From positions 124,001 to 188,000 of the forward strand of contig NZ_CAJHOB010000004.1 in assembly GCF_905120355.1 (NCBI RefSeq): a stretch of 64,000 nt of DNA, written 5' to 3'. Position 1 is the stretch's first letter, and the number at the start of each line of letters is the position of its first letter. The position numbers were made by a program, and so were the translations under genes. The DNA is from Azonexus hydrophilus. GTDB taxonomy: Bacteria; Pseudomonadota; Gammaproteobacteria; Burkholderiales; Rhodocyclaceae. Positions 35,923-48,465 of this stretch are shown here, in pieces. The notes under the pieces were generated by a model. The model made no database searches, was not told where the DNA came from, and saw nothing but the letters and a program-made list of their open reading frames with translations.

Positions 35923-37233
35923 ATGAGCACTCGCGAACAGCAAATCGCCGCCCTGGAAAAAGACTGGGCTGAAAACCCCCGTTGGAAGCTCGTCAAGCGC
36001 GGCTACTCCGCTGCTGACGTGGTTCGTCTGCGCGGCTCCCTGCAGCCGGAATACACCCTGGCCCAGCGCGGCGCCAAGGTCCTCTGGGAAAAGGTCAACG
36101 GCGGTGCCAAGAAGGGTTATGTGAACGCCTTCGGCGCCATCACCGCTGGTCAAGCCATGCAACAGGCCAAGGCTGGCCTGGAAGCCGTGTATCTCTCCGG
36201 CTGGCAGGTTGCTGCCGACGGCAACACCTCGGAAACCATGTACCCGGACCAGTCGCTGTACGCCTACGACTCCGTCCCGACGATGGTTCGCCGCATCAAC
36301 AACACCTTCAAGCGCGCTGACGAAATCCAGTGGTCGCGTGGCATCAATCCGGGCGACGAAGGCTTCATCGACTACTTCCTGCCGATCGTTGCCGACGCAG
36401 AAGCCGGTTTCGGCGGCGTGCTGAACGCCTTCGAACTGATGAAGAACATGATCGCCGCCGGCGCCGCCGGTGTGCACTTCGAAGACCAGCTGGCTGCCGC
36501 CAAGAAGTGCGGCCACATGGGTGGCAAGGTGCTCGTCCCGACCCGCGAAGCCGTCGAGAAGCTGATCTCCGCTCGTTTCGCTGCTGACGTCATGGGCGTT
36601 CCGACGCTGATCCTGGCTCGTACCGATGCTGAAGCCGCCAACCTGATCACCTCCGACTACGACGACAACGACAAGCCCTTCCTCACCGGTGAGCGCACCC
36701 AGGAAGGCTTCTACCGCGTCAAGAACGGTCTGGAGCAATCGATCTCCCGCGGCGTGGCCTACGCCCCGTACGCCGACCTCGTCTGGTGCGAAACCGGCGT
36801 GCCCGATATCGGCTTCGCCCGCGAATTCGCCCAGGCCGTGCAGGCCGCCTGCCCAGGCAAGCTACTGTCGTACAACTGCTCGCCGTCTTTCAACTGGAAG
36901 AAGAACCTCAACGACAGCCAGATCGCCTCCTTCCAGGAAGAACTGTCGGCGCTGGGCTACAAGTACCAGTTCATCACCCTGGCCGGTATCCACGTCAATT
37001 GGTACAACACCTTCAAGTTCGCCCACGCCTATGCTCGCGGCGAAGGCATGAAGCACTACGTTGAAATGGTTCAGGAACCGGAATTCGCCGCTCGCGAACA
37101 GGGCTACACCTTCGTGTCGCACCAGCAGGAAGTCGGTACCGGTTACTTTGACGAAGTCACCACCGTCATCCAGGGCGGTTCCTCCTCCGTGAAGGCCCTG
37201 ACCGGCTCGACCGAAGAAGAGCAGTTCCACTAA
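35923..37233 (+). CDS. aceA: Isocitrate lyase
   Basis: A 436-residue glyoxylate-shunt enzyme cleaving isocitrate to glyoxylate and succinate. It has the catalytic KKCGHMGGKVLVP signature and SPSFNWKKNLND. AAGGA precedes the ATG. The last 76 codons lie in a 230-bp direct repeat whose second copy is at 48236. The gene is full length, so insertion of the mobile element left an intact open reading frame. The 3' part now fused to it probably came from the element. Confidence 0.97.
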   Translation: MSTREQQIAALEKDWAENPRWKLVKRGYSAADVVRLRGSLQPEYTLAQRGAKVLWEKVNGGAKKGYVNAFGAITAGQAMQQAKAGLEAVYLSGWQVAADGNTSETMYPDQSLYAYDSVPTMVRRINNTFKRADEIQWSRGINPGDEGFIDYFLPIVADAEAGFGGVLNAFELMKNMIAAGAAGVHFEDQLAAAKKCGHMGGKVLVPTREAVEKLISARFAADVMGVPTLILARTDAEAANLITSDYDDNDKPFLTGERTQEGFYRVKNGLEQSISRGVAYAPYADLVWCETGVPDIGFAREFAQAVQAACPGKLLSYNCSPSFNWKKNLNDSQIASFQEELSALGYKYQFITLAGIHVNWYNTFKFAHAYARGEGMKHYVEMVQEPEFAAREQGYTFVSHQQEVGTGYFDEVTTVIQGGSSSVKALTGSTEEEQFH

Positions 37234-37234
37234 G
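37005..37234. repeat. Left direct repeat (attL side): 3' end of aceA
   Basis: 230 bp matching 48236-48465 base for base on my reading. The flanks differ at once (A/T before, C/A after). It includes the aceA stop codon plus one base. Confidence 0.95.
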
Positions 37235-37276
37235 CAACCGCTTACGATTGCCGCGACATCCTGCGGCATCCAGAAG

Positions 37277-37306
37277 GCCGATCCTCAAAAGGGATCGGCT
37301 TTTTTC
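37277..37306 (+). terminator. Terminator downstream of the reconstituted aceA
   Basis: GCCGATCC / GGATCGGC stem followed by T6. It is element DNA on this side, so the element supplies aceA with a terminator. Confidence 0.8.
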
Positions 37307-37364
37307 GTTCCTGATCCATCGCCCCCATGAGTACAATGTACTAATCACAAAGACATGAGCACCC

Positions 37365-46095: not shown

Positions 46096-46810
46096 AGCTC
46101 AGATGTAGAAGTCCGGAAATGGGAAACAAATTTCTCACTGGGTGTGAGAAATCCATCCCATTTCCTCCTTGCGGCGCCGCTGCCCCCCTCCCCCCACCTG
46201 CACCTGCGCCCACTCAAGCGCTGTGCCACCTGCACCCCGACGCGTCACGCCATCACCTGCCCCATCGGCACCGCCCAATCGCTCCACCTGCGCCCAAGAC
46301 GCTAGCACCCTGCGCCCCGTCGTCGCCGCCCCCGAACACACCCCCACCCCCTCATCTGTATCCAGCATCACCCGGCGTCGATCCTTCATTTCATCGATCA
46401 CTAACATCGCAGCCGGTTAGCAAATCGCAGCAGCGGCCTTGGGTTTGCTGCCCAAAATTCTGTTTTGAACTTGCACAGAAGTATTACAGACGCGCACAAA
46501 CGGCAGCGCCCCGACGAGGCATCCTGAAATCTGTGATGCAAAGCCGACCCGATCTCATATGTGTGGCTCGCGCAAGCTCCCAAGGAGCCCTCTAGCGATG
46601 CATATCCAATATCGCAGCGGCTCTGTAGATGCCAAACGCCCGTTCCTTTGTCGAGTATCGGGCGTGTGCCCCACATTTATCAGGCCACGAACAATCTCCG
46701 CCATCTCCCTGGCAACGGGAGAACGGCATACCCCCTTTGAATTTCCCATGCCCATGCGATCGCGCCAGCATCCATTGGGATTTCACATTGCAATATGAAA
46801 GGAAGTGATC
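46096..46810. other. Gene-poor 0.7 kb before the integrase
   Basis: I see no supported gene. The left part is C-rich and low in complexity (CCCCCCTCCCCCC at 46183-46195, repeated CACCTG). Short frames exist on both strands but have no ribosome-binding site or recognisable content. It may hold regulatory DNA for the integrase. Confidence 0.5.
46183..46195 (-). repeat. Intergenic G-tract, minus strand, before the integrase
   Basis: Six C, T, six C on the plus strand, followed by ACCTGCACC. Fifth member of the G-tract set. Confidence 0.5.
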
Positions 46811-47995
46811 ATGCCTATCGTCAGCATGGACCAAGCTTTCGTCAGGTCTGCGCAGTGTCCCGACGCCAAAAGCAAGATTGACTACTACGACCAAGCGATC
46901 ACCGGCTTCATGCTGGAGGTTCGACATACGGGTGGCAAAACCTATTACCTGCGGTATCGGGATGACCGTGGAAAATTGCGCCAGCACAAGATCGGTGACG
47001 CGAAAAGTCTGACCTACGACAAAGCTCGGCAAGTCGCTCAACGACTTCGTTCTCGTGTTGTATTGGGTGAAAACCCTGCCGAAGATCGAAAGGTATTGCG
47101 CACCATTCCGACGTTGCTAGAGGTCGTTGAGCAGCGATACATCCCGAACATTCAGCAGCATCGGCGCAACTACAGTTCCACCCTCAGTTTCCTCCACAAG
47201 CATCTGCTGCCAGCTTTGGGGCATTTGCACTTGGACGAGATCACCCCGGAGAAAATTTCTGAGGTGCATGTTGCCTTGCGTGACAGTGGCTATGCGCTGG
47301 CTACTGCCAATCGCTTGCCAATCTTCATGAAGACAATCTACAACCTGTGTCGCCGCCAGAAGGTGCCGGGTGCTACCCCGAATCCAGCCAACGAGGTGCA
47401 ATTGTTTCAGGTCAACAATGCTCGGGAACGGTATCTGACGCCCGAGGAAATTCAGCGACTCAGGGAAGCGTTGGAACTGAGCGAGAACCCCCAACTGCGA
47501 TACATCGTGCCCTTGCTGTTGCTGCTCGGCTGCCGCAAGCGCGAATTGCTCGATGCTCGGTGGGAATATGTCGATCTGGAACGCCGACTTTTGTACGTAC
47601 CGCTGTCCAAATCTGGAAAGCCACGGAACATTCCTCTATCGCTACAGGCGGTGGAAATGTTCAAGCAGCTTCCACGATGGAGGGGCTGCCCTTTCGTCAT
47701 TCCCAATCCCAAAACCCTGAAACCCTATGTCTCCCTGTATGAGCCTTGGCATGTTGCTCGCAAACGCGCGGGGCTTGAAGATGTTCGGATACACGATCTG
47801 CGACATACCGCCGCCAGCATGCTGGTTCAGGCCAATATCCCCATCTACACGGTCTCGAAGATTCTCGGACACACGCAGTTGAAGACGACAGAGCGGTACT
47901 CCCATTTGGCAGACGATTCTTTGCTTGCTGCTGCTGACACTGCCGCCAATGCCATGGCAAACGTTTGGGCCACCTCAAAATCTTCACCGGTGTAG
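46811..47995 (+). CDS. Tyrosine recombinase/integrase
   Basis: 394 residues. The N-terminal arm-binding region has FMLEVRHTGGKTYYLRYRDD (DUF4102-like). The core-binding domain is about 105-190. The catalytic domain has Arg in LLGCRKRELLDARW (near 240), Lys in LSKSGKPRNIPL, HDLRHTAA (near 329), LGHTQLKTTERYSH with nucleophile Tyr (near 365). All catalytic positions are present. AAAGGAAG precedes the ATG. It lies 240 bp from the right repeat, as expected for an enzyme that uses the aceA 3' end as its attachment site. Confidence 0.94.
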   Translation: MPIVSMDQAFVRSAQCPDAKSKIDYYDQAITGFMLEVRHTGGKTYYLRYRDDRGKLRQHKIGDAKSLTYDKARQVAQRLRSRVVLGENPAEDRKVLRTIPTLLEVVEQRYIPNIQQHRRNYSSTLSFLHKHLLPALGHLHLDEITPEKISEVHVALRDSGYALATANRLPIFMKTIYNLCRRQKVPGATPNPANEVQLFQVNNARERYLTPEEIQRLREALELSENPQLRYIVPLLLLLGCRKRELLDARWEYVDLERRLLYVPLSKSGKPRNIPLSLQAVEMFKQLPRWRGCPFVIPNPKTLKPYVSLYEPWHVARKRAGLEDVRIHDLRHTAASMLVQANIPIYTVSKILGHTQLKTTERYSHLADDSLLAAADTAANAMANVWATSKSSPV

Positions 47996-48170
47996 CGTGA
48001 CCTTGGGCAAAATTCTCCCTTTGTCAGCCTCTTCCCCTCCCCAGCTTTGCAACCCAGTGGGTAGGTGGTGGGTGTCGGCTTGGCACCAACCGAAAAATCC
48101 GGAATTCCACTCAGTACCGATGCACCTCTACATACTGTCAGCTCGTTGAAATACTGTGGGTGGCAAGGTA

Positions 48171-48464
48171 ATGGCCGAGAGAAAATCGAACTATTTCGTT
48201 GTGCTGCAAGGGTTTCCGCGTTTCTCTCCAAGATTCAACACCTTCAAGTTCGCCCACGCCTATGCTCGCGGCGAAGGCATGAAGCACTACGTTGAAATGG
48301 TTCAGGAACCGGAATTCGCCGCTCGCGAACAGGGCTACACCTTCGTGTCGCACCAGCAGGAAGTCGGTACCGGTTACTTTGACGAAGTCACCACCGTCAT
48401 CCAGGGCGGTTCCTCCTCCGTGAAGGCCCTGACCGGCTCGACCGAAGAAGAGCAGTTCCACTAA
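48171..48464 (+). pseudogene. aceA 3' remnant fused to a short leader
   Basis: An open frame of 97 codons. The last 76 codons equal the C-terminal end of isocitrate lyase; the first 21 or so (starting MAERKSNYFVVLQGF) come from element DNA and are in frame. AAGG lies upstream. It lacks the catalytic part of the enzyme, so it is best read as the displaced aceA end after integration. Confidence 0.8.
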
Positions 48465-48465
48465 G
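48236..48465. repeat. Right direct repeat (attR side): displaced aceA 3' end
   Basis: Second copy of the 230-bp repeat at 37005-37234, offset by 11,231 bp. Beyond it host sequence resumes with the probable original aceA terminator at 48503. Confidence 0.95.

What the first reader, a model, noticed from the sequence alone, without database searches (positions are those of the whole stretch)
37005..48465. An element using the 3' end of isocitrate lyase as its attachment site
A 230-bp copy of the aceA 3' end flanks an 11.2-kb segment with an integrase beside one copy. Most tyrosine integrases use tRNA genes; protein-coding targets such as icd are known, but I am not aware of aceA as a described site. 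On my reading the copies are identical over 230 bp, far longer than a recombinase core. That implies a donor nearly identical to the host, or strong selection. Targeting a glyoxylate-shunt gene while restoring its reading frame lets the element ride a conserved coding end.
Basis: partly seen in the sequence, partly recalled or inferred. Interest (0 to 1): 0.82.

Follow-up and report, generated by a model that had tools for sequence, protein, structure and literature searches.

The report
Mobile element inserted in aceA's tail
A small mobile DNA element sits in the end of the bacterium's isocitrate lyase gene and appears to supply a replacement end so that the gene stays whole; related elements do the same in other bacteria, and we found no report of this gene end as a landing site.

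Summary
The reading holds. The crossover is probably at aceA codons 361-367; the element then supplies the last 75 codons, stop and terminator, and the host's own tail is displaced beside the integrase. Three genomes of another family (G408, G490, G1133) carry integrases 57-60% identical with the same layout and breakpoint and tails 96.5%, 99.1% and 88.1% identical; four of their relatives keep uninterrupted aceA-thrS. A junction-ORF search gave 685 hits; of the 120 returned, 60 join unrelated leaders (21 clusters) to aceA at residue 361/362. So aceA's 3' end is a recurrent attachment site. Sister integrases use metF. The 230-bp length is the distance from breakpoint to stop; blocks up to ~250 bp are known for icd-type sites. 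Full identity needs no special selection. Known kind of element, site and integrase clade apparently undescribed in our searches. Mobility and exact element class were not shown.

The parts
35923..37233 (+). aceA, intact isocitrate lyase, 436 aa; on the model its last ~75 codons are element-supplied
   Evidence: ORF; 93.8-99.8% identical at the protein level to full-length aceA of 16 same-genus relatives, others of the genus carry a 75-77% type
37005..37234 (+). attL: first copy of the 230-bp repeat (third base of aceA codon 361 to stop+1); the core is probably its first ~20 bp
   Evidence: 230/230 identity; same breakpoint within about 5 bp in G408, G490, G1133 and in 60 public fusions
37235..37306 (+). 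aceA-type 3' untranslated region and terminator, on the model element-borne
   Evidence: matches several same-genus aceA flanks up to ~37306, 72 of 76 bases with G044; stable fold, z -5.1
37365..38096 (+). ORF, 243 aa; only weak matches (PADLOC PDC-S30 E 9e-6; Pfam RNase_Y_N below cut-off)
38099..38431 (-). helix-turn-helix regulator, 64-70% identical to regulators in G033, G012, G1133 and G490 loci
38546..40577 (+). three ORFs (38546-39034, 39031-39795, 39825-40577); the last has a PDZ domain; functions unknown
40765..42218 (+). three small ORFs (40765-41172, 41368-41664, 41739-42218); the 159-aa ORF 41739-42218 has 107 relatives at E<=1e-3, few of them named, one Azonexus sp.
42681..43130 (+). 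antirestriction protein (PF03230)
   Evidence: (E 1.3e-27)
43322..44113 (+). ORF, 263 aa, no family found
44205..45665 (+). VapE-like primase/helicase (PF05272); 47-55% identical in G408, G188 and P. gregormendelii loci
45763..46095 (+). ORF, 110 aa, no family found (not scanned against Pfam)
46805..47995 (+). tyrosine integrase, 396 aa, with arm-binding and catalytic domains
   Evidence: PF13356, PF00589, and PF22022 below its cut-off; R244, K269, H330, R333, H356, Y365 invariant in 12 sequences (catalytic roles recalled)
47996..48235 (+). P arm with GTGGGT motifs at 48057, 48068 and 48156, the last ~80 bp from the junction
   Evidence: same motif 76-84 bp from the junction in 6 of 6 elements measured; motif chosen after looking at the arms
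48236..48465 (+). attR: second copy, the displaced aceA tail; in frame with a 102-aa ORF starting at 48156
48466..48530 (+). host aceA 3' flank: hairpin and terminator
   Evidence: outside G000 the best match in 76 genus genomes is 35 bp at 86%, E 8e-4; fold, z -3.1
48610..50265 (-). fumA, convergent host gene to the right of the element

Best explanation
An 11.2-kb integrative element carries a tyrosine integrase that recombines its attP with a core at aceA codons 361-367 (about TACAACACCTTCMAGTTCGC). Shown: the gene is intact and the element's P arm abuts an orphan aceA tail of 230 bp. Inferred: strand exchange happens near the int-side edge of the block, so the intact gene receives its last ~75 codons, stop codon and terminator from the element, while the host's own tail and flank are displaced to the int side. 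attP keeps a full working tail because it was captured from an earlier host of the same genus; the 100% identity to the displaced tail reflects recent origin, gene conversion between the direct repeats, or both. The element is most likely a phage satellite or satellite-like replicating element (regulator, antirestriction protein, VapE-type primase, integrase; no structural or conjugation family in the ORFs scanned). The integrase belongs to a clade in which every member whose site was found here uses aceA.
For: Exact repeat and integrase. Three elements in another family with integrases of 57%, 58% and 59.5% identity, an intact aceA, a displaced aceA tail with the same left edge within about 5 bp, and a thrS-like gene beyond it; of 28 loci checked, four (G451, G726, G700, G559, all of that family) show aceA followed by thrS without an insert, two of them (G451, G726) aligning across the junction. 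Of the 120 proteins returned from 685 hits to the junction ORF, 85 have at least 12 residues unrelated to aceA before the tail, and in 60 of these aceA homology starts at residue 361 or 362; 21 leader clusters, 42 distinct tails. A GTGGGT motif lies 76-84 bp from the junction in 6 of 6 elements; 2-11 of 2000 shuffles per arm place it 74-86 bp away (post hoc motif). The integrase tree sets the window, G408, G490 and P0001-P0020 apart from three metF integrases and one cobQ-like one, SH-aLRT 97 (quick tree; G1133 not included). In the order sample 3 of 3 genomes whose integrase falls in this group have a displaced aceA tail; none of the other 5 with an integrase at E<=1e-110 shows a second aceA match. 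A decayed aceA tail near aceB in G019 suggests past occupancy in the same genus.
Against: No relative shows the aceA-fumA empty site: fumA was located in 12 of 12 genomes and lies by aceA only in G000, and no fumA occurs in 17 relatives' aceA loci, three of which have under 0.3 kb downstream. Site-specific recombination predicts that copy 1's tail came from attP and copy 2's from the host, yet they are identical although the flank after copy 1 is G044-like and that after copy 2 is not, so a homogenising step or second event is needed. The junction pattern had no exact match in viral contigs, and doubled aceA tails are uncommon in genomes: 4 of 194 aceA-positive genomes in the order sample, one of them doubtful, and 3 of 151 in the other family. 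Excision, circular form and transfer are not shown. The fusion search was seeded with a query whose aceA part starts at residue 361, which favours that position somewhat.
Confidence: 0.93

Rival explanations
1. The element entered this lineage as part of a longer chromosomal segment by homologous recombination: a donor's whole aceA plus element replaced the host gene, with the right crossover inside the aceA tail, and the integrase did not act in this genome.
For: G000 is 73-88% identical to G037, G044 and G006 at MCP, fumA, acs and lysR and 92-93% at aceB, yet its aceA is 97.4%, 96.3% and 95.4% identical to theirs; aceA places it with these three at 97/99 support; the flank after copy 1 is G044-like while the region upstream of aceA resembles no relative. 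The last 225 bp diverge from G044 and G006 more than the rest of the gene (Fisher p 0.019 and 0.005; G037 0.065; four other relatives 0.385-1.0).
Against: Keeping G037+G044+G006 together without G000 at aceA is not rejected (p-AU 0.174), and grouping G000 with all three in the other five genes is not rejected either (p-AU 0.105), although G000+G037 alone is (2.6e-13). aceA is slow-evolving. The rival concerns arrival here, not how the elements insert.
Confidence: 0.3
2. A prophage or conjugative island remnant rather than a satellite-like element.
For: The primase matches 534 phage records; the 15 listed are 39.7-42.9% identical.
Against: No structural, terminase or relaxase family was convincing: Pfam and PHROGs each saw 10 of the 13 ORFs listed; 40765-41172 was in neither and 41368-41664 was scanned against nothing. 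Only a weak PHROG head-scaffolding hit (E 0.0015) on the 243-aa ORF.
Confidence: 0.2
3. A chance segmental duplication or an assembly error.
For: Draft assembly in 59 contigs.
Against: Same breakpoint and layout in G408, G490 and G1133 and in public protein clusters including one with nearly the same leader (P0228).
Confidence: 0.02
4. The duplicated tail is cargo under selection: the element swaps isocitrate lyase C-termini to benefit the host.
For: Tails differ between attL and attR in G408 and G1133.
Against: Differences are mostly third-position: against 16 relatives the last 225 bp show 10-34 nucleotide but 0-7 amino-acid changes. A replacement tail is needed just to keep the gene intact.
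Confidence: 0.04

Closest known systems
icd-type integrative elements (E. coli prophages and satellites in isocitrate dehydrogenase)
   Same: Internal site well inside a coding gene; attP carries a replacement sequence; identity block up to ~250 bp (PMC10111431, passages seen)
   Different: Target is aceA, a different gene; the integrase was not compared with icd integrases here
Helper-embedded and other PICIs of gammaproteobacteria (PMC10111431, passages)
   Same: Integrase clade repeatedly hitting protein-coding sites; a motif copy 81+/-2 bp from the attP centre there, 76-84 bp from the junction here
   Different: Chromosomal metabolic gene instead of prophage late genes; different motif; no downstream partner motif established here; no helper known
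Sister elements in metF (G012, G033, G188)
   Same: Integrases 56-57% identical; displaced metF end at the int side; same arm-motif distance; regulator relative in G012 and G033, antirestriction relative in G033
   Different: Different target gene (named from recall); short diverged repeat (37 bp at 81% in G012). Only G012 has both ends in view

Membership tests
Tyrosine-integrase genomic element in a protein-coding 3' end (icd type) | Tyrosine recombinase with catalytic residues encoded by the element | tested here: met
   PF00589 E 5.5e-26, PF13356 E 1e-13; invariant R244/K269/H330/R333/H356/Y365 in 12 sequences (roles recalled)
Tyrosine-integrase genomic element in a protein-coding 3' end (icd type) | Direct repeats of the target gene end at both element ends, target ORF intact | tested here: met
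Tyrosine-integrase genomic element in a protein-coding 3' end (icd type) | Uninterrupted site in relatives | tested here: inconclusive
   Not found for aceA-fumA; found for the site of the other family's elements, aceA-thrS in G451, G726, G700, G559
Tyrosine-integrase genomic element in a protein-coding 3' end (icd type) | Integrase acts on the site; element excises | not testable with these tools
   needs bench work
Phage satellite (PICI-like) | Integrase, regulator and primase without phage structural genes | tested here: met
   each on 10 of the 13 ORFs listed; 41368-41664 not scanned at all
Phage satellite (PICI-like) | Helper phage dependence, cos/pac site | not tested
   no search made
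Integrative conjugative or mobilisable element | Relaxase or conjugation genes | tested here: not met
   no such family among the ORFs scanned; oriT not searched
Prophage | Head, tail, terminase genes | tested here: not met
   no convincing hit among the ORFs scanned; one weak scaffolding-protein hit, E 0.0015

The most novel reading that the evidence does not exclude
The 3' end of aceA is a previously unrecognised integration hotspot, probably of Betaproteobacteria, served by a dedicated integrase clade; this integrase family has switched between metabolic gene ends (aceA, metF, possibly cobQ) and, by carrying replacement tails, moves isocitrate lyase C-termini between species.
Probability: 0.55. 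Interest if true: 0.6.

Novelty: new variant of a known kind. Interest (0 to 1): 0.48.

Why it matters
It gives a new, well-defined attB inside a conserved metabolic gene together with an integrase clade that appears to recognise it, useful for mapping genomic islands that tRNA-centred methods miss and as a candidate insertion tool. The aceA and metF sister groups, with similar arm-to-junction distance but unrelated cores, make target switching by tyrosine integrases testable. It also suggests a simple rule: the length of the flanking repeat is set by the distance from core to stop codon.

Tried and rejected
Chance or assembly error: rejected, see rivals. tRNA as target: none in the window; the tRNA-Lys genes after the G033 and G012 integrases are not taken as the site because a displaced metF end lies before them. 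hrpA as target in G490: an HrpA-like C-terminus (name recalled) follows the integrase, but a displaced aceA tail lies further on, so dropped. cobQ-like target in Pseudomonas gregormendelii (L099): named from recall of the sequence and the following cobU-like ORF; the other end lies beyond the held stretch, so unproven. Targets for G577, G613, G670, G722, G011, G036, G001, G181, G226, G204 and the alphaproteobacterial relatives looked at were not identified. First genome contigs and viral-contig scans with the single integrase gave nothing; the wider scans with an alignment gave mostly remote relatives. Class-level integrase search: 2 of 369 genomes, both already known. GGDEF search in G000, G053 and G019: nothing. 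GTGGGT scan straight after the G490 integrase found none; it was found once the true junction was known. Literature: by title and start of abstract, no paper on aceA or isocitrate lyase as an attachment site in the listings (empty); in three papers the words aceA and isocitrate have no occurrence (PMC12884075, PMC10111431, PMC10936790, passages only). Subscription journals are mostly not held.
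Full report
Observation. The two stretches are identical at 230 of 230 bases, 11,231 bp apart, and occur nowhere else in the held genome. The first ends the intact 436-codon aceA; the second is an orphan tail between the integrase (46805-47995) and fumA. The repeat begins at the third base of codon 361 and ends one base past the stop.

The element. Between the copies I list 13 ORFs: a helix-turn-helix regulator, ORFs without known function, an antirestriction protein, a VapE-like primase and, nearest the second copy, a tyrosine integrase with arm-binding and catalytic domains. 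PADLOC gave a weak match for the 243-aa ORF, E 9e-6, and weaker ones. No structural, terminase or relaxase family was convincing, but Pfam and PHROGs each saw only 10 of the 13 ORFs and 41368-41664 was not scanned. Regulator relatives occur in the G033, G012, G1133 and G490 loci, primase relatives in G408, G188 and P. gregormendelii, an antirestriction relative in G033. The element is satellite-like; no helper was sought.

Same site elsewhere. A protein search with the 101-aa junction ORF of G408 in 399 genomes of the order gave 194 with a match and 4 with two: G000, G408, G490 and G618. In G618 the second match is a 50-residue piece at a contig edge and was not followed. In a 255-genome sample of the family of G408, 151 had a match and 3 had two: G408, G490 and G1133. 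In these three an intact aceA and a displaced aceA tail lie 15.1, 18.3 and about 7.7 kb apart, with an integrase 57%, 58% and 59.5% identical to the window's between them; a thrS-like gene (name recalled) follows the displaced tail in all three. The two tails match at 222 of 230, 318 of 321 (terminator included) and 208 of 236 bases. Of 28 loci checked for thrS, four (G451, G726, G700, G559) show aceA followed by it without an insert, with alignment running across the junction in G451 and G726.

Public proteins. The 102-aa ORF that starts in the P arm at 48156 and runs into the displaced tail gave 685 hits, of which 120 were returned. Of these 120, 85 have at least 12 residues unrelated to aceA before the tail and 35 do not. 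In 60 of the 85, aceA homology starts at residue 361 (47) or 362 (13); the other 25 are spread between residues 289 and 370. The 60 leaders fall in 21 clusters, one of 36 members, and the tails in 42 sequences. P0228 has nearly the window's own leader. The query's aceA part began at residue 361, so this position is somewhat favoured.

Geometry. A GTGGGT motif stands 76-84 bp before the junction in 6 of 6 elements measured: three at aceA (G000, G408, G490) and three at metF (G012, G033, G188); between 2 and 11 of 2000 shuffles of each arm place it 74-86 bp away. The motif was picked after looking at the arms, so this is not a blind test, and for metF the distance was taken to the ATG of the conserved tail. 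A near-constant distance with different cores suggests that strand exchange happens at the int-side edge of the repeat. The 230-bp length then follows from the distance between core and stop codon. PMC10111431 (passages) says that att identity blocks reach about 250 bp when an integrase uses an internal site, as at icd, and that attP then carries a replacement sequence.

Target switching. G012 (both ends seen), G033 and G188 (int-side end seen) carry integrases 56-57% identical with a displaced metF end (gene name recalled). In a quick tree of 34 integrases the window, G408 and G490 sit with P0001-P0020 apart from the metF three (SH-aLRT 97 and 100; short search, simple model; G1133, G670 and G722 not included). 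The sites of P0001-P0020 are unknown. In the order sample 8 genomes had an integrase at E<=1e-110: G000, G408 and G490 have displaced aceA tails; of the other five, G033, G577 and G670 show one aceA match and G613 and G722 none.

What happened in this genome. Several same-genus relatives carry an aceA 3' flank and terminator that also follows copy 1 here, 72 of 76 bases identical to G044. The flank after copy 2 has a similar layout of hairpins but its best match in the other 75 genus genomes is 35 bp at 86%. This fits an element that captured aceA tail and terminator from a G044-like host and displaced this host's own tail and flank. The identity of the two coding tails then needs gene conversion, or an attP that already matched. 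Eight sites in 37101-37221 differ from all of G037, G044 and G006 in both copies, in line with conversion from the host tail, but the test is weak. The whole aceA gene is closer to G037 than other genes are, so import of aceA with the element by homologous recombination is a live rival; tree tests do not decide it.

G019 carries a decayed aceA tail with terminator remains near aceB, and its intact aceA on another contig; no integrase at E<=1e-60 was found there. This looks like an old occupied site (inference).

Results against a broad reading. The junction pattern matched nothing in viral contigs. Doubled tails are uncommon in genomes (above). The integrase reached E<=1e-110 in 2 of 369 class genomes, both already known.

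Literature. Nine searches that ran listed, by title and abstract start, no paper on aceA as an attachment site. PMC12884075 (passages) states that many attB sites lie in protein-coding genes and that many attP sites complete the gene. The kind of element is therefore known; the site and the clade appear undescribed within these searches.

Verdict. The long repeat is ordinary for such sites. Open points are mobility, the class of element, and the history of this particular copy.

Noticed in passing
L042 (G053:C15:112000-121289): The contig ends 126 bp into the aceA repeat, as an assembler might do at a duplicated tail; no second copy or integrase at E<=1e-60 was found in G053.
   Followed up: partly
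G1153:C16, G1222:C1, G1238:C21, G1239:C89, G033:C109: In these genomes the contig breaks about 135-215 bp beyond the aceA C-terminus, which may hide further elements at the site; in G033 the flank looks like an insertion sequence (from recall).
   Followed up: no
L043 8403-8524 (G019:C36): Decayed displaced aceA tail with an internal deletion reaching the terminator, near aceB.
   Followed up: partly
window 48156-48464: The displaced tail is in frame with a leader that starts at an arm motif; 32 of 85 fused public proteins have a 26-residue leader. Whether the chimeric ORF is expressed is unknown.
   Followed up: no
L081 7565-8980 (G000:C3): Reverse transcriptase/maturase-like ORF, probably a group II intron, left of the aceB locus (name recalled).
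   Followed up: no
L290 (G490): HrpA-like C-terminal ORF (name recalled) between the integrase and the displaced aceA tail, unexplained.
   Followed up: partly
window 48610-50265: fumA adjoins aceA only in G000 among 12 genomes. An htrA-like gene (name recalled) lies beyond fumA's 3' end in G030, and alignment covers it in G044, G050 and G045 but not in G053, G039, G011 or G056.
   Followed up: partly
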